From: Ectocarpus siliculosus
Lineage: Eukaryota; Sar; Phaeophyceae; Ectocarpales; Ectocarpaceae
DNA: 32,114 nt
Direction: 5' to 3'
Assembly: GCA_000310025.1 (NCBI GenBank)
Contig: FN648822.1
Location: forward strand, 1 to 32,114
The position numbers were made by a program, and so were the translations under genes. The notes under the pieces are model-generated. The model was not told the DNA's origin, searched no databases, and was given only the letters and a program-made list of their open reading frames with translations. Shown piece after piece: positions 13,278 through 29,725 of the stretch; the stretch's first letter is position 1, and each line of letters opens with the position of its first letter.

Positions 13278-18630
<5,353 letters not shown>

Positions 18631-19634: not shown

Positions 19635-21103
19635 CTGCCAAGAAGAAGGGGTAAGCGGAACCGATAGGGTTCTCGTTTCCACCATGTAGATAGCTCCTCA
19701 CAGATGAAGTCTGGACTGGAGGAGAAATATCGAGAATATCAGCACATGCCCACGATTGGATCGGATTGCTTGAAGCCGGTTCTCTATCCTCTAGTATGAG
19801 AGTTTACTGGGCTGCGCAGGTCGATATCTGGGGACGTACATGTATGTATGCTGCGTGGGATACGAATCTGTATTTCGTGTGCAACGATTGCCCCAGTCTT
19901 CTCTCACAACTAAAGACTGCGCAGCGTAGATTCGGGTGTGTTGCATTTCTGCATGTAAGATAGCATTGTCTGGTCTGTGATACGATCGATACAAAGTGGA
20001 TTGTGTCGAAGGAATCGAAGTGTCACTTACTTGACGAAGGCGTTCGTTCAGGCAGACACAACCAACCATTCATCCTCGAGTGGTTTATTGATCGCCGTCG
20101 ATACCATTTGAGTAAAAGAAACACTTGGAGCGAGAAAGAGAGAGAGTTGGTGTTTTTTTACGGATCCCGTCATCGATTATTCCATTTACTACGTAGATTT
20201 CAGGAAGGTTCAGTGTTTGTGTCCTCAATGTGGAGTGGTTGTGAAGGTTGATTTACGATCACCACCCGATTGAATGTGATTTGTCTTGGATTATTGGTGG
20301 TTTTACGTTTGGATTTCGACCACTTCGATTGACACGCGATCGCTAGCCGTAGATCAAATTTTGTCTGGTGCGTTCGACTGTTGTGTTGCAACATGTATTG
20401 GTTCTGGAGGGCAACAGTGAAACATTCGGGAAACCATGCCACTGCATTTGGCTTTGATTGGATCAAAGGCAATCATGGTATCACCCTTCCCTCTCCGTGT
20501 AGCAAATTCCCCGATCCGCACAACAACACAACCACCGAACGGGATGGGAGATTGGTGGGCCGATGTATCATTCGCGGGTCGTGTGAGCCCTTTTGATTTA
20601 CTTGTATGTCGTTTGTGGAGATTTGCCGATCGATGTTGACACGTACCTCGGACGTTGAGAAGGCAAGACGTTGTATATGTATACTCATTGAAGCGTTGCG
20701 AAAGCGGCTCGAGATGGCGGGCGCGAGGGAGTAATGAGCAGACTTGCACAACCAACTACAATTATTTTCCTTCGTGTTTGTGTCGTTTTGTTCCTGTGTC
20801 CGACTGTCTATTATGTCTTCTCGCTTGTTGATGCTCGCACAATAATTTCGTGTGGTCTCCAAGCGTGACAACGCGATCAGAGACAACGTTGTGACACGGT
20901 GCGGAGACCCTCACACTCAGAAGCGGAAGGAAGCTTTGTTTCCGTTGTCAGCATTATACATGCATGCCTGGGTGCGCCACAATGTTGCTGGAAAGCTTTC
21001 AAACCCACACTACTCGTTCGCGTCCTGTCTGACCCACGAGTTTTTATTATTGAATACTTCGAAGTAATATTTTTTCAGGTCTTTTTTACACTTTATCATT
21101 ACA
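19635..21103. other. Region between the candidate small gene and the telomere-resolvase ORF
   Basis: It may contain upstream exons of the candidate small gene (donors after 20647 and 20031 on -). A 10-bp palindrome acaacgttgt lies at 20883-20892. I could not find a copy of the 26.9-kb palindrome here, so the left end of the mobile element is not located. Confidence 0.35.
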
Positions 21104-22222
21104 CTATAACACGATTCCAATCGTGTCAACTCTACCCCCACTCGTACAATCACCCACCCATTGCCTGCAATGACTGTCTTCAATCCCCTCTACCCTAATA
21201 ACTGAACTCTTACGTTGCAACGCTGGCGACAAATGACCCACAATCACTCGTACCCACCCTTCGAAATCCAAACCATGTCCTTTGAATACCCGATAAGAGA
21301 TCGCGGCATGTAAAACCTTGAGATCACCAAACACGTGCCGACCATCAGTCGGCAAAAGTTTCCTAGCTGCGATGTTGACTGACTTGCTGTAACGTTGATT
21401 TATCTCTGCAGCCGTGAGACAGGAGGTGTCTTTCATGCCGCGCAGCCTCTTGAGACCTTCGATGAAGTGGTCGAACTCACACAACAACAGGACCCGGGCC
21501 ACAGTTCCCATCTTAACCTCTGCCTCGTAGGGGCCACGCGTGCTTGGTGAAAAGTCAGATTTCCCGGCAAGCTCCGCTAGACCCCTCCCAGACACAAACG
21601 ACAACGCACACGCAAGTTCAAAGTAATTCGGGCGTGCGTATCTGATGATGGACTGCATGGTGTCGATGAGATCGCTCGCGTGCACCGTTATTCCACGCCT
21701 ACACTTTGCCTCTAGGGACTCTCGGCGTTTTATTCTTGGCAAGCTTTTCTCCTCGGGCGTGAGCTCTAACCGGGAGACGTAGGGCGGAAGCAATCGCACC
21801 TTCCTCAGGAGGTCGTCAATTTCGGCGAGCCCAGTGAAAGACACCGTCCGCGAGTGTATCGCGCGTCGGGCCGACCATTTATCGGTAAGGTCTAATTTCT
21901 CGAATGACACAACGCGACCCCAGGCCTTGTGTAGCTGTTTCAGGTATTCCTTCCGCCCCTTCGTCTTCTTCGCCGCGGATGATCTCTTCTTGATAAGGGC
22001 GAGCAATCGTCGGATTTCGGTCTTGACGGGACCTGCATTGTGTCGGGCGCCGAACGTTTGTATCCAAACTTCCCGAACCCTTCTGACGTTCTTGTTTAAG
22101 GAGCCAGGGTGTAGCTTCCTCAGAACATCCAGAACCTCGCGTGGATTCTCGTGCTCTTCCAGCCATATGGCGCACATCCATATATTTCCATCCATGTTGA
22201 ATACTGCTATTAACAAAAACAC
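21104..22222 (-). CDS. Telomere resolvase (protelomerase)-like protein
   Basis: The open frame is 372 codons; the Met at 22195 (MDGNIWMCAIW) is the more natural start, giving 363 residues. An N-terminal basic helical region (to about residue 180) precedes a tyrosine-recombinase-like catalytic half. ELACALSFVSGRGLAEL (Arg213) fits the first catalytic Arg; Lys237 sits in a likely beta-hairpin. CEFDHFIEGLKRLR, VFGDLKVLHAAISY (Lys302) and VRVIVGH (His330) follow in the order and spacing of TelN/TelK/ResT-type resolvases, which cut and rejoin palindromes into hairpin telomeres. Two departures: the expected second catalytic Arg is Lys302, and no Tyr follows His330; the position 11 residues on is Val341. 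So this copy may be inactive. A divergent tyrosine recombinase is the alternative. Confidence 0.6.
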   Translation of the reverse strand: MFLLIAVFNMDGNIWMCAIWLEEHENPREVLDVLRKLHPGSLNKNVRRVREVWIQTFGARHNAGPVKTEIRRLLALIKKRSSAAKKTKGRKEYLKQLHKAWGRVVSFEKLDLTDKWSARRAIHSRTVSFTGLAEIDDLLRKVRLLPPYVSRLELTPEEKSLPRIKRRESLEAKCRRGITVHASDLIDTMQSIIRYARPNYFELACALSFVSGRGLAELAGKSDFSPSTRGPYEAEVKMGTVARVLLLCEFDHFIEGLKRLRGMKDTSCLTAAEINQRYSKSVNIAARKLLPTDGRHVFGDLKVLHAAISYRVFKGHGLDFEGWVRVIVGHLSPALQRKSSVIRVEGIEDSHCRQWVGDCTSGGRVDTIGIVL

Positions 22223-22246
22223 ACATTATATCCTGTATTTGTTAAT
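22209..22246. repeat. Inverted repeat between the two element genes
   Basis: attaacaaa (22209-22217) and its exact complement tttgttaat (22238-22246) are separated by 20 nt. It lies in the ~60-bp gap between the HNH stop and the resolvase start. It could be a processing or termination hairpin, or a recognition site. Confidence 0.6.
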
Positions 22247-22253
22247 GATGGGG

Positions 22254-23039
22254 CTACTTCTCCTCCTTCCCACTATCATCTACCTTTTTCTTTTTTGTGC
22301 GTCCTCTCCCCAGGCTACCACGAGCGCGATTGCACCTCAAGCACTTGACATCCACATTGTCAGCAGTGTGAGGCAAAGAGCAGTCAAGGCGGTCGAGAGT
22401 CGGTTGGCGTTCGCTGTAAACGGCCCAGACAAGCTCACATGAGCAAAGGCTGCATCTACCTCCGTACGAGTTCAGGAGCTCTTCGGCAAGAGCTTCCCTA
22501 TGCTGGATACCCTCGTCTGGTCCAAGACGGCCGGCCGTAACGTCGGCGTAGATGTAGCTTGAAATCTTCCGAGAAACCCATGACACCCTCTCTCGGCCGG
22601 GCATGTTGCTCTTGCTACGGTGAATGTCGTCGATGACCATCACGTTCGAGGGTCCGGTCGCTCGACTGACAGCCGTGTACAGCCAGTGGACGTCAGCGTG
22701 ACGGTGCCGGGCCTGATGTATGATCAACCTCCCTTCCACGGTACGACCTTGGACCGCGTGTACTGTGCATGACCCCGGAGGATCAAAAACAACGTTTTCT
22801 GCCTCCGCTCGACAGAGTGAAGTTTCCTCAAGACTAGCACCATCGTCAAATGCACTCGCGACGATGACGTTATCTCCTGAGGACCGGATGATGCTGTAGG
22901 TGTGGTTCTTGTGAATCTTGCCCAGGTTTCCGAGGTCTCGGTATTGCGCACCGACAACCGTCTGACACCCCAGCCCATCCCAGTCACCGGCCTCGTTGCA
23001 CCCCAGCAAACCTCGAAAGGCGTGGAATCGAGCACATTC
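22254..23039 (-). CDS. Helicase C-terminal motifs plus HNH-type zinc module (3' part of the PolB-helicase gene)
   Basis: This frame continues the polymerase-helicase frame directly after an in-frame TGA at 23042-23040. It supplies the missing SF1 helicase motifs: motif V as CTVHAVQGRTVEG and motif VI as WLYTAVSRAT. A C-terminal module then reads CSLC (about codon 196 after the stop), LDRLDCSLPHTADN and CLRCNRARG. This is a C2-C2 zinc ribbon with the His and Asn spacing of HNH (His-Me finger) nucleases, and a Lys-rich tail follows. Motifs V and VI lie only after the stop, so helicase activity would need readthrough or an intact relative. The next methionine-type start (GTG/ATG context near 23009) would give only a helicase tail, so independent translation seems unlikely to be meaningful. 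Confidence 0.7.
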   Translation of the reverse strand, partial: ECARFHAFRGLLGCNEAGDWDGLGCQTVVGAQYRDLGNLGKIHKNHTYSIIRSSGDNVIVASAFDDGASLEETSLCRAEAENVVFDPPGSCTVHAVQGRTVEGRLIIHQARHRHADVHWLYTAVSRATGPSNVMVIDDIHRSKSNMPGRERVSWVSRKISSYIYADVTAGRLGPDEGIQHREALAEELLNSYGGRCSLCSCELVWAVYSERQPTLDRLDCSLPHTADNVDVKCLRCNRARGSLGRGRTKKKKVDDSGKEEK

Positions 23040-26000
23040 TCATGTGTACGCGAGATGAAAATCTGAAGGGCCAGGATTGTCGGTATGCTCCCTGCCAAAC
23101 CTCTCTATGGCTCGAGTCTGCGCCTCGTGACTGTCGTTGCCTGCGGCCAGAATGTACAGGAGGCCGTCATCCATCTCCACCTGGTCTTCGATAGTTTTGT
23201 CTCGCTTGCGCGCGAAGACGTGAAAACATATGGGGAAGGCTTTTTCGAGGATGACCTTCCTGTCGACGTTGTCCCTGCTAATCGACATGCCGCTGCTATC
23301 GCAAACGGGTTGGAGTTGGTGCGTGTCGTACGTCCCGATTACGTGGGTACCGCTACTATGGGCAGCCGCAAGGATCATGCTTAAGGTACGGAGAGGCATG
23401 TAGGCAGCTTCTTCGATGATGATTACGTCGACCTTGAGCGTTCGTATCGATCCCGCCGTCTTCCTCACGAAAGAGTCATCACTCAGGTAGAATCCAAGCT
23501 GGTGGTCAGCGGTTTTTACACTCCACCGGGATGGCAGGTTTGCGTAGGACGTGCGCAGGCTGTTTGTGGGGGTCAAGACTAGTCCTCTCTCGAATGTAGC
23601 GGTGGCAGCGCGGATAGTGCAGTAACTTTTCCCGGCCCCTCCATGTTCTCCGGTCACCGCACAGACGATCCTAGAACCTTGCGGAGACAACAAGCCGCGG
23701 AACAAACTTTCTAGTTTCGATGGTGACTCGGCCTCGCATATTTCCGGCCAGAGATCGCGCTTGACGTTCTTGCCGAGACGACGCCAGGCGTCGTGAGCTT
23801 CTTCCATCGAATTGAAGACGGCGCCGACGCCATCCCACAGAGGAATGATCCGCAGATGGGTCTGCGGTGGGCAGGGAATTTGCCTTGTTGCCGAAGGAAA
23901 CGCATCTAGCGATAGCTTGACCACGATGCCTTCGAACACCCGCCTCTCACCACACAGCGGGTATTTTAAGGCTGGTTGGAACTTAAGCGTGCCGGGAGTT
24001 TTTTCGTTGCCGCCGAACAAATGGCTGAAGCGGAGTCTCATCTCTTCCCGAACCGAGCAAGGTCCCTTGAAGAACACTGCGTCACACTGGTAGCTAAAGT
24101 TGGACGCGCCGCATGATTCGAGAGCGTTCCTCGCTTCTAACACTCGCAATCGAGTTTCGTCCAGAATGAGCGCACCTAACGCCCAGAAGCCATCTCTATA
24201 CCAAGTCCGTTCTGCGTTGAAACAAAGGTATGCATCACCGGTGCGAAGTGACTCGACTCCAAGGTCCCCTTGTCCCGTCCGAAGCTCGGCCTTGACGCGA
24301 TCGACTTCACACAGGACAGGCACGATTTTTCCGCCCACAGCGGAAGCCTCGTCACAGCTCGTAACCATGACGGCATCTATCCTGTCCGCGTATCTCTGCT
24401 GCAACATACCGCTGGCCCGCACGAGTATTCCTTTTTTGAACCGGCGTGCACAGTCGACATCCTCGAGGAGGGGATCACCCAGCTCGTGCGCGAGCAGGTC
24501 TTTCACCAGGGTGGGGATGTGACACCTGTCGACCGTTCTCGATGGTCGCACAAAGTGTGTGACTCTATGGCGAGGCGCGGAGTCGATGAGGTCGAGGTAA
24601 CGCTTGTAGTTTCGACCGAAGACTGGCATGACATCCGCGTTAAGGAATACGTCTGGCTCATCGAGTGCGTCCAGCTTGATGATGTACAGTGTCCAATCCT
24701 CGATGTTGTGGCCATCGAACTCTTCCACCTCGTGGATATGGCCGAAAACCGGCACCGTCTCCATGTTTGTTAGAGCCGCCGTGTATGCCCCGTTGATGTC
24801 ACATTGCCAGTCTTCCCTTCCGTAGGAACTCCCTCTCGCGTGCTCTGCCCCGACGATAGGTCCCCGCCAGCATACCTCAAGGAGGGCGAGAAGAGACTGG
24901 CTGTACTGGCTCGACACTCGAAAATCCAGTACTCCGCGGTAGAACTTTAAACCCAGCGCATTGTGCAACTCGATCAATCGTGTCGCCTGGTCGGAATCGA
25001 AGCCATCAGGATCGAGTCCGCCCATGCTCGAGCTGCACCAGGTTCGGATGGTTATGCCATGTGCCGGTAACGACAGGGAGTCCCAATGGCTGTAGTTGGT
25101 GAGCCTACCCCTGCAAGAGAATCCAGCGAGGTGCAAATGGAGCATCAGCTCGTCGAGAGCCGTTCCCGGTGGTGCGTACCACGTCTTGAACTCTGATGTT
25201 GTTTTTGCACGCTGCTTCCGTTTCTTCTGTGTTGCCTGTTGGTGGAAGTCCTCCTCCTCTGTCTGTTTGATTGCCGTGATATCGCTCACAATATGGGCGA
25301 CGCACGAGAAGGTCTTGCTTCCGCACCCCATACGGTCCGCTTCGTCATTCTCTTCGATGGCCTCGGCAATCCGACGGAATCTACGGTGGGTTCGAATGCC
25401 ATTTTCGATGGCCACGTCCACAGGTGATCCAAACCGGTCCCTCCACGGCCCCACGAGCTCCAGTCGGTACACGTGTCCCTCACGAACCCCGACGTGTATT
25501 GTGGGCGGTCGGAGTTTCGTTTTGCCTCCAGATGGTCCGAGAACGTTGGCGCCGATACCCCTGTGTGACCACACAACGACGTGGGCCTTGGTCATGTTGA
25601 GCCATTTTTCGAGATGACGTAACGTCAGGGCGGGTGGTTTCGCGTACCGTCTAACCCACCTATCGAACTCCGCTTCCCCGATATCACGCTCCAGTAGAAT
25701 CGAGTACAGGTTCCGGAAGTACTTTCCACCATCCAGAGCATTGTTGCTTTGCGCAGGCGCACCCTTTCTTGGTCGACCACCCCCGCGTGACATCTCGAAA
25801 ACACCGGCAGGGCGTACATCGCGGAATCCAAATCTCCTCCTCTCCCGTAGCAGTTCGATTTGACTGTCGCGCCACACGTTGGCGATGAGGACGGCGAGAC
25901 AGGACCCGGGGAGTTTTTCTTGCCACATTTTGCCGTACGTGGTCGTGGGGGTATACCTCACTATCCTGTGTCCGAAGGACGCGATATTCAATTGTCTGAA

Positions 26001-26092
26001 ACGTGGGCTCTGCGAGTCCAAAGTAGAGCGGACCTGGAGGTCCACGAGGGAACACGGGATGCCCTTGGCGTCGACATCGATCTTCCTGTCTA

Positions 26093-26542
26093 TTATAGTG
26101 ATGCCCAGCAGAGGATTGCTGGCCAGGTGTCATCCGCCGCCGAAACAACCAGCTGCCCCCGGCCACCGCCCTCGACGTCAATGAAGGCGGTTTTCCAAGC
26201 ATCTGCGTCTCTCGGGTGGACCAAACCGCGCCGCCACGTCCTTGTTGCCCAGGATTGAAAATTTTCCAGTGAAGGATCACCGCCGGCGGGGTGCGAATTG
26301 AACCATCTATGTCCCGGTCCACGGGACGTGGCCGAGATACGAACCCTACATCCTGTTCCGAAGACCGCCTGTCGACGATACATTACCCCTCGTGGCCCTT
26401 TGTAGCGCCACCCATTACTCCTGGTTGGCAGGGGTTCGGCCTGATCCACCTGCTCCACGTAGCACCATCTGTATCCTGGTTGTTGATGGGGTGATGACCC
26501 ACTCGTCGATGCTGCAAGTCGTTTTTTGAGCCCACGCAACAT
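26093..26542 (-). pseudogene. N-terminal segment of the polymerase gene, shifted frame
   Basis: The frame from ATG 26542 (MLRGLKKRLAAST...) runs to a stop at 26093 and overlaps the start of the polymerase frame, which is closed upstream by a TGA at 26132-26130. So the shift lies between 26132 and 26093. The segment is basic and Trp/Arg-rich, and ends near AFIDVEGGGRGQ, whose D-x-E could be the Exo I pair of a proofreading exonuclease. An intron instead of a frameshift is possible, but I see no convincing GT-AG pair there. Confidence 0.5.
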
Positions 26543-26602
26543 TCTTTTGTATCTATCTATAGTTTGAAGGACACAAAAATTATCCACAGATCTGCGCGAA
26601 TC

Positions 26603-26616
26603 GTCAACCACGGTCC
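26603..26616 (+). promoter_or_regulatory. Copy of the GTCA(A/T)CCACGG motif near the polymerase start
   Basis: gtcaaccacggtcc at 26603-26616 closely matches both arms of the nested palindrome: gtcatccacggcc at 26883-26895, and gtcatccacggtc as the complement of 26936-26948. Three copies in 350 bp, outside the coding region, suggest a protein-binding or replication site. Function is inferred only. Confidence 0.4.
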
Positions 26617-26882
26617 GATTCTTTGTTGATTGATTGAATGGTGGGACCGTTTGGAAGTCTGTAGATGACCAAAACCAAATTTCAGTTTTCGCCTCCTCCT
26701 ACTACTGTCGCTTTGTCCGTCGCGGGCTGAGTCGTGCCTCAACTGGAGAGATAGTAATTATCAGGAGATGACCCTGCGATCGGTGCTTTGTCACCCCTTC
26801 TCCATTGTTGACTGAGAGCGCTACTACCTTGTTTGTTTGGTTGGGTGATTCCCGAGATGGTGACTGGGATCATCATCAATCA

Positions 26883-26948
26883 GTCATCCACGGCCTAAAA
26901 TTCAAATTTTGAATTTCGCCGAAAGGCGACTTCTCGACCGTGGATGAC
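26883..26948. repeat. Nested (T-shaped) palindrome upstream of the polymerase gene
   Basis: The outer arms gtcatccacgg (26883-26893) and ccgtggatgac (26938-26948) are perfect 11-bp complements. Inside them lie a 9-bp palindrome, aaattcaaa-t-tttgaattt (26898-26916), and immediately after it cgcc-gaaa-ggcg (26917-26928), a 4-bp stem with a GNRA loop. Folded as single strand this gives a three-way, T-shaped hairpin like those at the ends of parvoviral and some linear plasmid genomes. It is a candidate end, origin or telomere-resolvase substrate of the element. Confidence 0.7.
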
Positions 26949-27014
26949 ATCATCGGACGACCAGGGATTTTTTTGCCCTTTCTTTAGAACGTTCCTTTAA
27001 AAAAAATGGCCAAT

Positions 27015-27031
27015 CAATTAATTATTAATTG
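27015..27031. repeat. 17-bp AT-rich palindrome
   Basis: caattaat-t-attaattg is a perfect inverted repeat with a single central base. It lies about 70 bp outside the nested palindrome, at the outer edge of the element as I can trace it. Telomere resolvases act on palindromes, but AT-rich palindromes also arise by chance. Confidence 0.5.
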
Positions 27032-27422
27032 CGGGCACCTTTAGTAGCCTTAACGACAACACCAAAACAAACAAACATATGGTTGCACATACAGACACGG
27101 CTTGGTCGTCATGTTACCAAATCTTATTTTTATCCTGGTGGGTGAGGCGACGGGCGACATATTATGAGATGTGGGATGACGTTGAAACACGGACCGACTA
27201 TACACAACGGCAACGTCATCGGAGGATTTGGGTCACGCCAGTGGTGCTCATCATGTTGTCGTGCATTGAACATTAACGTTCTCTAAAAATGTCTAGCATA
27301 CGCTTGCGTAGGAAGAAGAACCACCATCACAATTACTACTTTTCAGTCGCGAAAGCCGAACTCCTGTACATTACAAGGAGGACAACTCCTCCATATCTTC
27401 GACCAGGGTAGCGCTGACGCGG

Positions 27423-28505
27423 ATGTTGCTCCTCAAGGAACCTGCACCAACCCCGCTCACCCCTGCCCCATCTCCCGCAAAGGCATACACGGACGCCAGC
27501 GAAGTCGCCACCTGGATCCACCGGGTCAGGCCCGACGTGTCACTCCCTGGGGGGGCGTCACCATACCGAATACTCTTCGGTCGGGAGTTGCGTAGCCGCA
27601 TTGACGCCATGACCCAACAAGCCCTCGACGATGCCTCCTTTGGCCAGGGCCTTGAGAGGACGATTGCGGACCAACAACGCATGACGCAAGAAATCCTCAA
27701 ACGTTGCCGTGAAGCCCAAAACTGGCAACGACAGCGCCACAACGCCAACATGGCGCTGTAGTCGCCGGACGCCAATGCCGACTAACCCTCGGCGAGCAAC
27801 ACTCTCCACCGCGACAGCCACCACCCGAAGCTCGCGAACGATCACTACACCGGCCCGTGGAAGGTCACCCACGTCATCCGCGACCACCTGAGTTTCATGG
27901 TCCAACTGAACGGGCGACGGGTGCGCCAACGCCGAGTCGCGACCGCAGATGTCAAGATGTACCACGCGCGACCCTATCACCTTCGGCTCCCGTTCGAGGA
28001 CGAGTATGCACACCTCGTGTCGTCCGCCGACCTCGGCCTCGCCGACATCCCTGTCGTCGCGGTCTCCCTGTACACGCTGCTGGACAGGAAGGTCGTGCAC
28101 GGTACCGGCGGCACTTCGGCATGGTCTTGGGAGTGTCAAGGCCGCTTCCAAGACGGTACGCTGTCGCCCTGGCTGACGGAAGACGAGACGAGTGACAGCT
28201 TCTCCCCTTTCCAACCCGACGTCTTTCGCGCGGCGTATGAGGCCTATCATGGTGAGGATGCCACACCACGACCTGCCGGACCACCTTCTCGGGGCGCACG
28301 TGAAGTGGAGTCGCGGGAACACGCCTTGCGACTCTTCCCAGCGGGTACGCAAGTGGACCGCGAGTTTGTAAACAACGAGGGTCAATCCAAGGTGGCCAAA
28401 GCCACCGTCTTCGAGTTTTTCGACCCCTACTGGCGAATGGAGTACACTGACGGCGACTGCGAGGAGCTCACGGAGCGTGAGATGGACGTTGGCGTAGGCT
28501 TGGCT
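27423..28505 (+). mobile_element. Ty3/gypsy retrotransposon remnant (integrase C-terminus)
   Basis: The frame reads ASPYRILFGRELRSRID, the conserved end of the integrase core of gypsy-type elements. It then reads HYTGPWKVTHVIRDHLSF and RPYHLRLPFEDEY, the integrase C-terminal GPY-type module. Further on, VFEFFDPYWRMEYTDGDCEEL resembles the chromo-like tail seen in stramenopile gypsy elements (my recollection, not searched). The frame is interrupted by TAG at 27759 and TAA at 27783, so this is a dead copy. Protease, RT and RNase H parts are absent, so it is 5'-truncated; no LTR was identified. Confidence 0.75.
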
Positions 28506-29725
28506 GCCCGCCCTTCCTTCTCTGCCTGGGTCGCGACCGACCCGTACGCCACTGCCGTAAGCCTGCTGACTGTCTGTCTGGCAGTCTGGGGGAGTGTACT
28601 GGCAGTGGACCCCCACGCGATATCTCACGCGGAAGATATTTTTCTGCATCGCCGTCATCGTACCGATCGACGGAGAATGGATGAGACCCACGATCGCAGT
28701 CTTCTGGTCCATGAGAGTCAAGATCACCTTCTCCTGGCCCAAGGTCGTGTCTCCCTTCGCCAGCTTACGTCTTTGCGGACGAACTAGCAAGCGGGAGTCG
28801 AACCGGGTGGGGGAGCCGGAAAGCCCGTCGTTTAGAATAGCCGTCTACCACGGTCGATGCTGGGGGGGTAATACAGCCGGTCCTCCCCACCGGTTCTCGA
28901 AATACGATCATTCGCACGGTCGCGAGTATCCGGAGGGCGCAGGCTGACATGGTCGGGAATCAGACAGACCAATCTGTCCCCCGATCTAGCCTGCTGGAGG
29001 GGCTAGGATACATACATGTTGTCCGGCGCCTGGGGGCAAACGCCTCTTCGTCTGGTGTTTGTCCCCGACAACAAAACAGGTGTCTCACTCGATACCGCCC
29101 TGAGAAGCAAAGATCTTGAGCCATATCCGTTGCCTTTTGCCACCCACTGTGAGTGCTGAACCTGGTAGGCTTGACTATGGAGCTTTCTATGGATGGATAC
29201 TTGGATGCGGTGGATGAGATATGGATGACATGCAGGGGTTGGAAAGGAGCTTTTGGAAGTTGGAGCTGCTTGCTAGGATGTGTGATACCGCTCGATTGCT
29301 TTATGGGCTGTCGACTCGGCAGACGCAGGTTGACTATGTTTGCACAGGTGAGACATATCCCTCCCGATTGGATATTGCCCAACCTTACCTCTGTTTCATA
29401 TCAATCAGCCTCCCCTATTTGTGAGCCATGCCTTCAGTATCTGTCAGCAACTCCAAAACACAAGAAAATAAACTCAGAAACTCAACTCAAATCTGAAACA
29501 ATAGCCCTCCTGGCTAGAAATCAATTCCCACCCCCGATCATTCCAGTTGTATTTATTCGAAACGTTAGCGATCTAACTGCCCCCTAACCTAGAACAACTT
29601 CCATTGAGAAAACCATTGGCAAAAAAAAAAACTGTAAAACGTTGCCTCCCCAGTTGTTTAATCACACACAAATAAACCCAAGATCTAAGATTCTTATCCC
29701 ATACGCATTGGAACTCAATATCTCC
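28506..29725. other. Retroelement-flanking sequence, no gene recognised
   Basis: The gypsy frame stays open to 28787, but the part after about 28505 has no family similarity I know. About 29100-29720 lies downstream of the copia RNase H on the - strand, so it may hold its 3' LTR. On that strand it has AT-rich stretches including a TATA-like ataaatac, but terminal TG...CA repeats could not be confirmed with one copy. Confidence 0.4.

What the first reader, a model, noticed from the sequence alone, without database searches (positions are those of the whole stretch)
21104..27031. Possible new element: PolB-helicase-HNH fusion paired with a telomere resolvase in a eukaryotic genome
A single gene joins a family B polymerase palm, an SF1 helicase and an HNH module. 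It is followed at about 60 bp by a protelomerase-like gene and preceded by a T-shaped palindrome. Telomere resolvases are known from phages such as N15 and from Borrelia, where they make hairpin chromosome ends. Coupling one to a replicase suggests a linear, hairpin-ended virus or plasmid that integrates into algal DNA. I know of no eukaryotic transposon class with this gene set, though I cannot search.
Basis: partly seen in the sequence, partly recalled or inferred. Interest (0 to 1): 0.92.

Follow-up and report, generated by a model that had tools for sequence, protein, structure and literature searches.

The report
Algal mobile element with dead resolvase
A brown alga's genome carries many copies of a virus-related jumping element that pairs its own DNA-copying enzyme with a relative of a giant-virus end-closing enzyme whose active site has been lost, a combination I did not find described.

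Summary
In detail: replicase gene, resolvase-like gene and T-shaped palindrome are there. They mark a multicopy integrated element of about 12-16 kb; the window holds a truncated, frame-broken copy (about 20194-27042, minus strand). Of 14 loci with nearly the whole polymerase part, 13 carry the second gene or part of it downstream. Two-ended copies have inverted terminal repeats, about 170-700 bp; one, set against paralogous empty sites, shows a TA duplication. The replicase is a protein-primed-type PolB, SF1 helicase and HNH fusion, a kind published for polinton-like viruses and transpovirons. The second gene is a true telomere-resolvase homologue, nearest to that of a phaeovirus-type provirus in this genome. 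But catalytic residues are lost: box-I Arg in 21 of 21, nucleophilic Tyr in 18 of 18 sequences covering the site, though the gene is under purifying selection. Hairpin-end formation by this protein is thus not supported; an end-binding role is likelier. No capsid, integrase or transposase was recognised in the ORFs tested. New variant of a known kind.

The parts
20194..27042 (-). window copy of the element: one terminal repeat, replicase, resolvase homologue; the far end is missing
   Evidence: blastn to copy C3 20194-26703 at 85% and to C12 20406-26700 at 80%; terminal-repeat match to 27042; no second terminal repeat of this contig among the matches
26870..27042 (-). terminal inverted repeat (one end); outer motif AAAGGTGCCCGC at 27031-27042
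   Evidence: matches termini of other copies; the (GA)n run outside the motif is decayed in this copy
26883..26948 (.). T-shaped palindrome inside the terminal repeat
   Evidence: the repeat finder I3; DNA fold z -5.9; strong in 5 of 25 terminal repeats folded
26093..26611 (-). N-terminal part of the replicase, separate frame in this copy
   Evidence: ORF list; resembles the N-terminus of longer relatives (by eye)
23040..26045 (-). main replicase ORF: PolB palm plus N-terminal part of SF1 helicase
23292..23639 (-). SF1 helicase ATP-binding part (AAA_30 match)
   Evidence: residues 803-918 of the ORF
22254..23009 (-). helicase C-terminal part and HNH/endonuclease VII-like module, separate frame in this copy
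22314..22484 (-). HNH module (phrog_1035 match)
   Evidence: residues 176-232 of the ORF
21104..22222 (-). telomere-resolvase homologue with catalytic residues lost
21224..21688 (-). degenerate ResT/TelK catalytic domain
   Evidence: PF16684 residues 179-333; same place in the genome search

Best explanation
The window holds a decayed copy of a multicopy integrated element that most likely descends from capsid-less, transpoviron/polinton-like-virus replicons. SHOWN: 12-16 kb; inverted terminal repeats ending in (GA)n-AAAAGGT(G/C)CCCGCA; insertion next to T, at one tested site in a TA; one gene for a PolB-SF1 helicase-HNH fusion; and just downstream a gene for a phaeovirus-type telomere-resolvase homologue that lost the canonical catalytic residues yet is under purifying selection. 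INFERRED: the fusion protein replicates the element as a linear extrachromosomal molecule from its terminal repeats, as pPolB-S1H proteins are thought to. The disarmed resolvase binds the paired or palindromic ends as a recognition or architectural factor rather than cutting and closing them. Integration goes into TA sites using the HNH nuclease or an enzyme supplied by host, virus or an unrecognised gene in the element's right half.
For: Multicopy, paired genes: 13 of 14 near-complete replicase loci carry the resolvase gene or part of it, 11 short replicase fragments carry none. In a second genome (Ectocarpus sp. CCAP 1310/34) three predicted proteins, P0022, P0027 and P0041, run from replicase into resolvase sequence (by eye). 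Ends: eight copies with both end motifs in inverted order, seven of them compared for repeats (C54 was not), six of which show the repeat there, C17 not. Terminal motif 76 exact genome matches, 0 for the reversed control. TA: 14 of 16 host bases next to the ends are T; for copy C6, 7 of 8 paralogous empty sites have one TA where the filled site has one on each side. PolB of phi29 type; motif C with one Asp in the 24 of 26 members in which my pattern found it; helicase and HNH profiles. Resolvase homology: PF16684 in 11 of 14, phrog_5272 in 12 of 14, PDB ResT E 8e-4, profile-profile probability 98.7; best match of all 10 full-length proteins tested is the provirus enzyme. Catalytic losses. dN/dS 0.17-0.36 for the resolvase gene (11 of 28 pairs, the rest saturated) and 0.09-0.29 for the replicase (9 of 10 pairs).
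Against: No extrachromosomal form was seen. No integrase, transposase or capsid was recognised, so how it moves is open. The second tested insertion (C455) did not give a clean TA duplication, and one of eight C6 empty sites lacks the TA. The modelled polymerase aligns with phi29 from residue 6, so an exonuclease-like fold may still be there, unlike published Tlr1-like fusions. Many sites hold only 18-217 bp of a terminus, which the model does not explain. The first box-I Arg is kept in 18 of 21, a Lys stands near the missing AKK motif in some members, and at the Tyr position Ser or Cys is invariant, so an unusual residual activity cannot be excluded.
Confidence: 0.6

Rival explanations
1. One reading: an active telomere resolvase makes covalently closed hairpin ends on a linear element.
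For: True homology to telomere resolvases; the two ends placed head to head would form a palindrome of about 50 bp (read); one natural, imperfect head-to-head junction exists at C26:2582169-2582206.
Against: Second box-I Arg lost in 21 of 21, Tyr lost in 18 of 18, AKK motif missing in 21 of 21, His and box-II Arg mostly lost. The C26 junction may be two neighbouring insertions.
Confidence: 0.12
2. A polinton-like virus: the right half encodes a capsid and integrase too diverged to recognise.
For: Replicase of PLV kind; size and inverted repeats fit endogenous PLVs (PMC10120064 passages: generally 15-30 kb, terminal repeats in about 47%); unassigned right-half ORFs of 200-400 codons, some conserved between copies.
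Against: Eight right-side ORFs against Pfam (best E 0.02), five against NCBIfam (none) and five against PHROGs (best E 0.07) gave nothing convincing; the right half differs much between copies.
Confidence: 0.2
3. An ordinary TA-targeting cut-and-paste transposon that carries the replicase and resolvase genes as passengers.
For: TA duplication at C6 is typical of Tc1/mariner-like elements (recalled).
Against: No transposase found in the ORFs tested; replicase and resolvase pair is the constant part while the right half varies.
Confidence: 0.13
4. The resolvase ORF is a decaying leftover of a viral gene without function.
For: Catalytic residues lost; many fragmentary copies.
Against: Purifying selection, dN/dS 0.17-0.36 in the 11 of 28 pairs that could be computed; eight uninterrupted copies; conserved C-terminus; relatives in several brown algae.
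Confidence: 0.05

Closest known systems
pPolB-S1H fusion proteins ('Tlr1-like helicases') of polinton-like viruses and transpovirons (PMC11071308, passages read)
   Same: Protein-primed-type PolB palm, then SF1 helicase, then a C-terminal HNH or GIY-YIG nuclease; first Asp of polymerase motif C missing, motif A kept.
   Different: N-terminal TP and vOTU domains not tested here; an exonuclease-like fold may remain; partnered with a telomere-resolvase homologue.
Transpovirons of mimivirids (PMC7031253, passages read)
   Same: pPolB-S1H replicase, terminal inverted repeats (380-520 nt there, about 170-700 bp here), no recognised capsid, repeats 3' of the helicase (spaced direct repeats in copy C6).
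   Different: Transpovirons are about 7 kb linear episomes of giant viruses; these are 12-16 kb and sit in algal chromosomes; no link to virus particles is known.
Telomere resolvase of phaeoviruses / Ectocarpus endogenous giant viruses (PMC13236599, section 8 read in full, passages elsewhere)
   Same: A provirus enzyme of this kind is the nearest relative of the element's second gene among those compared, including a C-terminal WTF ending in part of the family.
   Different: The viral protein keeps the catalytic residues and belongs to a virus of 288-407 kb; the element protein does not keep them.
Protelomerases TelN (N15), PY54, VP882, phiHAP-1
   Same: Same family by profile comparison.
   Different: Catalytic residues complete; phage enzymes, in N15 close to the annotated cut-site palindrome, not paired with a replicase fusion.
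OmPLV of Oxyrrhis marina (PMC12721341, abstract and passages read)
   Same: SF1 helicase and protein-primed PolB in one protein of about 1,500 residues, endogenous.
   Different: Domain order reversed (helicase first), complete exonuclease, capsid and tyrosine recombinase present; the word telomere does not occur in its text.
Polintons/Mavericks and Cryptons (recalled)
   Same: Self-synthesising element with PolB and inverted repeats; tyrosine-recombinase-related gene, respectively.
   Different: No integrase found here; Crypton recombinases are active, this protein lacks the residues.

Membership tests
pPolB-S1H fusion (Tlr1-like helicase) | palm of protein-primed family B polymerase | tested here: met
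pPolB-S1H fusion (Tlr1-like helicase) | motif A kept, first Asp of motif C missing | tested here: met
   one-Asp motif C found in 24 of 26 members by a pattern of my own, not found in P0038 and P0041; motif A DIN-x-[AS]-[HY] by eye; equivalence to phi29 motifs judged by eye, as the automatic alignment failed
pPolB-S1H fusion (Tlr1-like helicase) | exonuclease domain lost | tested here: inconclusive
   structural alignment starts at phi29 residue 6, but no exonuclease acids could be aligned
pPolB-S1H fusion (Tlr1-like helicase) | SF1 helicase C-terminal to the palm | tested here: met
   AAA_30 in 21 and UvrD_C_2 in 16 of 26, phrog_325 in 24 of 26
pPolB-S1H fusion (Tlr1-like helicase) | C-terminal HNH or GIY-YIG nuclease | tested here: met
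   endonuclease VII phrog_1035 in 12 of 26, several members being partial; window 2.4e-6
pPolB-S1H fusion (Tlr1-like helicase) | N-terminal TP and vOTU domains | not tested
Transpoviron | terminal inverted repeats with a pPolB-S1H gene | tested here: met
   linearity outside the chromosome not shown
Transpoviron | about 7 kb | tested here: not met
   two-ended copies 11.9-16.2 kb
Transpoviron | propagates with a giant virus | not testable with these tools
   needs infected cultures
Polinton-like virus | double jelly-roll major capsid protein | tested here: inconclusive
   no convincing Pfam, NCBIfam or PHROGs match among the right-side ORFs tested; no folds predicted
Polinton-like virus | RVE or tyrosine integrase | tested here: inconclusive
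   none recognised in the ORFs tested
Telomere resolvase (protelomerase) | homologous sequence profile | tested here: met
   profile-profile probability 98.7, E 4.2e-16; PF16684 in 11 of 14 at E up to 0.1
Telomere resolvase (protelomerase) | catalytic Arg, Lys, Arg, His, Tyr | tested here: not met
   second box-I Arg 0/21 (first of the two Arg 18/21), AKK 0/21, box-II Arg 4/18, His 4/18, Tyr 0/18
Telomere resolvase (protelomerase) | makes covalently closed hairpin ends | not testable with these tools
   needs in vitro assay or long reads
Phaeovirus provirus | NCLDV major capsid protein at the locus | tested here: not met
   the only PF04451 match found in the genome is C16:4438430, near the canonical resolvase, not at element loci

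The most novel reading that the evidence does not exclude
The element is a satellite of the alga's own phaeoviruses: it took the virus's telomere resolvase, disarmed it, and uses it either to dock on viral or element telomeres and borrow the virus's active enzyme, or as a decoy that hinders virus telomere resolution. It would be a chromosome-resident giant-virus parasite, and perhaps an antiviral defence, in a multicellular alga. A bolder alternative not excluded is that the invariant Ser/Cys at the Tyr position serves as a new nucleophile.
Probability: 0.2. Interest if true: 0.92.

Novelty: new variant of a known kind. Interest (0 to 1): 0.75.

Why it matters
It would be, as far as the searches here show, the first eukaryotic transposon-like element to carry a telomere-resolvase homologue, and the first case of that enzyme family turned into a selected protein without the catalytic residues. 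It links PLV/transpoviron-type replicons with the phaeoviruses that latently infect brown algae of the same kind, where resolvase-made linear genomes have just been proposed (PMC13236599, section 8). Because copies with uninterrupted frames exist and the virus of one Ectocarpus line is induced by low temperature (PMC13236599, section 8), the link can be tested directly.

Tried and rejected
Structure prediction of the resolvase homologue: pLDDT 48.6, no useful fold match; no weight given. MAFFT alignment of the polymerase with phi29 misplaced the motifs; motif equivalence rests on reading by eye and on the structural match. The replicase profile found no polymerase, helicase or nuclease in the PDB by sequence (one unrelated match at E 0.25). 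Viral contigs with the resolvase alone, with its alignment and with the replicase alignment: no relatives. A link between the element's end motif and the provirus region of C16: none among the first 100 of 354 places listed in a 2-mismatch search, and no 2-mismatch place was listed at all; the reversed control had 111. No inverted repeats within 60 bases of each other in the 3.5 kb held around the viral resolvase gene. Rfam over 19800-27200: none.

The short end fragments (18-217 bp of terminus in 32 of the 36 ends in L029-L062; the other four run to about 400 bp, the length compared) first looked like abortive integration. In one (C15:2227445) the sequence beyond the break is a highly repeated element that starts at the break, so some are simply interrupted; I do not build on them. 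That search took the first 12 of 18 joined solo flanks prepared, scored 40 of 763 candidates, and showed no clear empty site. In one search likewise 40 of 265 candidates were scored. C455 as a target-site test: its eight empty sites did not fit cleanly. Central tandem repeats as in transpovirons: Tandem Repeats Finder found none in the right-hand stretches of C6 and C17 and only a 25-bp pair in C9b; longer spaced direct repeats exist in C6. A first attempt at folding the C6 repeat was cut at the wrong place and was redone for 25 repeats. The alignment of terminal repeats was likewise cut unevenly and not used. A notebook line says the Tyr is replaced mostly by Arg; that was a hand alignment, replaced by the two computed ones, which give Ser or Cys.

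Full report
WHAT WAS CHECKED. The window is a whole 32-kb contig (C271) of a 189-Mb genome held as G000. In the window the replicase is broken into three frames and the far end of the element is missing. It is a decayed copy.

THE ELEMENT. A tblastn of the resolvase ORF against the own genome gave 33 matches, and of the main replicase ORF 48; the tool calls such counts lower bounds. Merged, these make 25 replicase loci and 21 resolvase loci. Fourteen replicase loci hold 2.7 kb or more of the gene, and 13 of them have resolvase sequence within 5 kb (at C8 only 237 bp), the exception being C9:178445. The other 11 are fragments under 0.9 kb without it. Eight resolvase loci have no replicase, one of them viral (below). 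DNA from the palindrome region matches 47 places, several of them in inverted pairs around the genes. Both end motifs were seen for eight copies: C6, C3, C17, C18, C9 (4.22 Mb), C54, C455 and C9 (0.17 Mb, without resolvase), from 11.9 to 16.2 kb. In the self-comparison the repeats are about 175 bp in C6 and C3 (97% identical), 540-700 bp in C18 and C9 4.22 Mb (95-98%), and about 79% identical in C455. C17 shows no such pair, its two ends being of different types, and no ends were found in the stretch of C457 held. In five copies the replicase is a single frame of 1364-1450 codons, and in eight copies the resolvase frame is uninterrupted.

ENDS AND INSERTION. The ends read (GA)n-AAAAGGT(G/C)CCCGCA. 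The core AGAAAAGGTSCCCGCA occurs 76 times, the reversed control 0 times. In eight two-ended copies 14 of 16 host bases next to the ends are T. Joined flanks of eight copies were searched (40 of 265 candidates scored). For C6, eight paralogous empty sites were fetched; seven show one TA where the filled site has a TA on each side, one lacks it. That is a 2-bp TA duplication, or an insertion at TA with an end A/T, which the sequence cannot tell apart. For C455 the eight empty sites fetched do not fit cleanly.

RESOLVASE HOMOLOGUE. Homology to telomere resolvases is firm. The genome also holds one canonical relative, C16:4529333-4530214 (30% identical, E 2.4e-16; PF16684 59-60 bits). It is found once and lies 90 kb from the only NCLDV capsid match found in the genome, so it most likely belongs to a phaeovirus-type provirus; such proviruses with a telomere resolvase are published (PMC13236599, section 8 and passages). 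All 10 full-length element proteins tested match this enzyme best (62-87 bits, against at most 52 for four phage enzymes). Residues invariant in the viral and four phage enzymes are lost in the element family (21 sequences, some of them near-duplicates, 18 covering the C-terminal sites): second box-I Arg G/A in 21 of 21 (the first Arg is kept in 18); AKK absent in 21; box-II Arg to Lys in 14 of 18; His in 4 of 18; Tyr aligned to Ser or Cys in 18 of 18, and in the same way in the profile alignment. That these are the catalytic residues is recalled knowledge plus the passages on TelA read in PMC3558466. Selection: dN/dS 0.17-0.36 for the 11 pairs with computable dS (17 of 28 pairs are saturated), replicase 0.09-0.29 for 9 of 10 pairs. 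Of 30 resolvase relatives in the protein search, the 6 with a species name are from Ectocarpus, Laminaria, Scytosiphon and Pylaiella, all brown algae. The word-based search could miss others.

MODULARITY. The window replicase is 83% identical to C17 and 70% to C12, but its resolvase is 60% identical to C17 and 81-87% to C12. The right 7.4 kb of C6 and C3 is 99.6% identical, the left 5.7 kb 91%. Copies exchange parts.

MECHANISM. Shown: anatomy, copy number, T/TA at insertion, selection, loss of active-site residues. Inferred: linear replication from the terminal repeats, end recognition by the disarmed resolvase, and the source of the integration step, which stays unknown.

NOVELTY. Searches for telomere resolvase or protelomerase with brown algae, transposons, polintons, virophages and eukaryotic elements listed no such element. 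Two of these gave complete lists (two papers, none); the others showed the top 12-25 of 20-602 papers; the library is open-access only. The replicase is a known kind, and its pairing with a disarmed giant-virus-type telomere resolvase is what appears new.

CHECK. On checking against the calls I mended the number of computable dN/dS pairs (11, not 12), the distance to the capsid gene (90, not 91 kb), the wording on ends and on capped lists, and added the kept first Arg.

Noticed in passing
L019:1388-3783 (G000:C9 about 174887-177280): Tandem array of truncated element ends (units of 28, 54, 76 and more bp), each restarting with the GA run; looks like repeated end addition or template switching.
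   Followed up: partly
L021, G000:C26:2582169-2582206: Two element ends head to head with almost no spacer, a natural imperfect palindrome; dimer junction or two neighbouring insertions.
   Followed up: no
L029-L062: Many genome sites with only 18-217 bp of a terminus followed by other DNA (32 of 36 ends); at least one is interrupted by another repeat.
   Followed up: partly
L063, G000:C16:4528265-4531738: Canonical telomere-resolvase gene beside a VWA-domain gene, 90 kb from the only NCLDV capsid match found: a phaeovirus-type provirus.
   Followed up: partly
L016:1407-2387 (-) and L027:1820-2641 (-): Right-half protein conserved between two copies (60% over 266 residues), no convincing family match; an H-x-D stretch recalls 2-oxoglutarate dioxygenases (by eye only).
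   Followed up: no
window 13278-16890 (-): ORFs that look like exons of a papain-type cysteine protease gene (by eye, no search).
   Followed up: no
window 27300-28790: Looks like an LTR-retrotransposon integrase tail next to the element (by eye); Pfam gave only a weak Tudor match for 27897-28784.
   Followed up: partly
P0049: Distant 1349-residue protein (E 5e-3, 24% identity over 19% of the query) with palm-like, helicase and HNH-like segments by eye: the fusion may reach beyond these algae.
   Followed up: no
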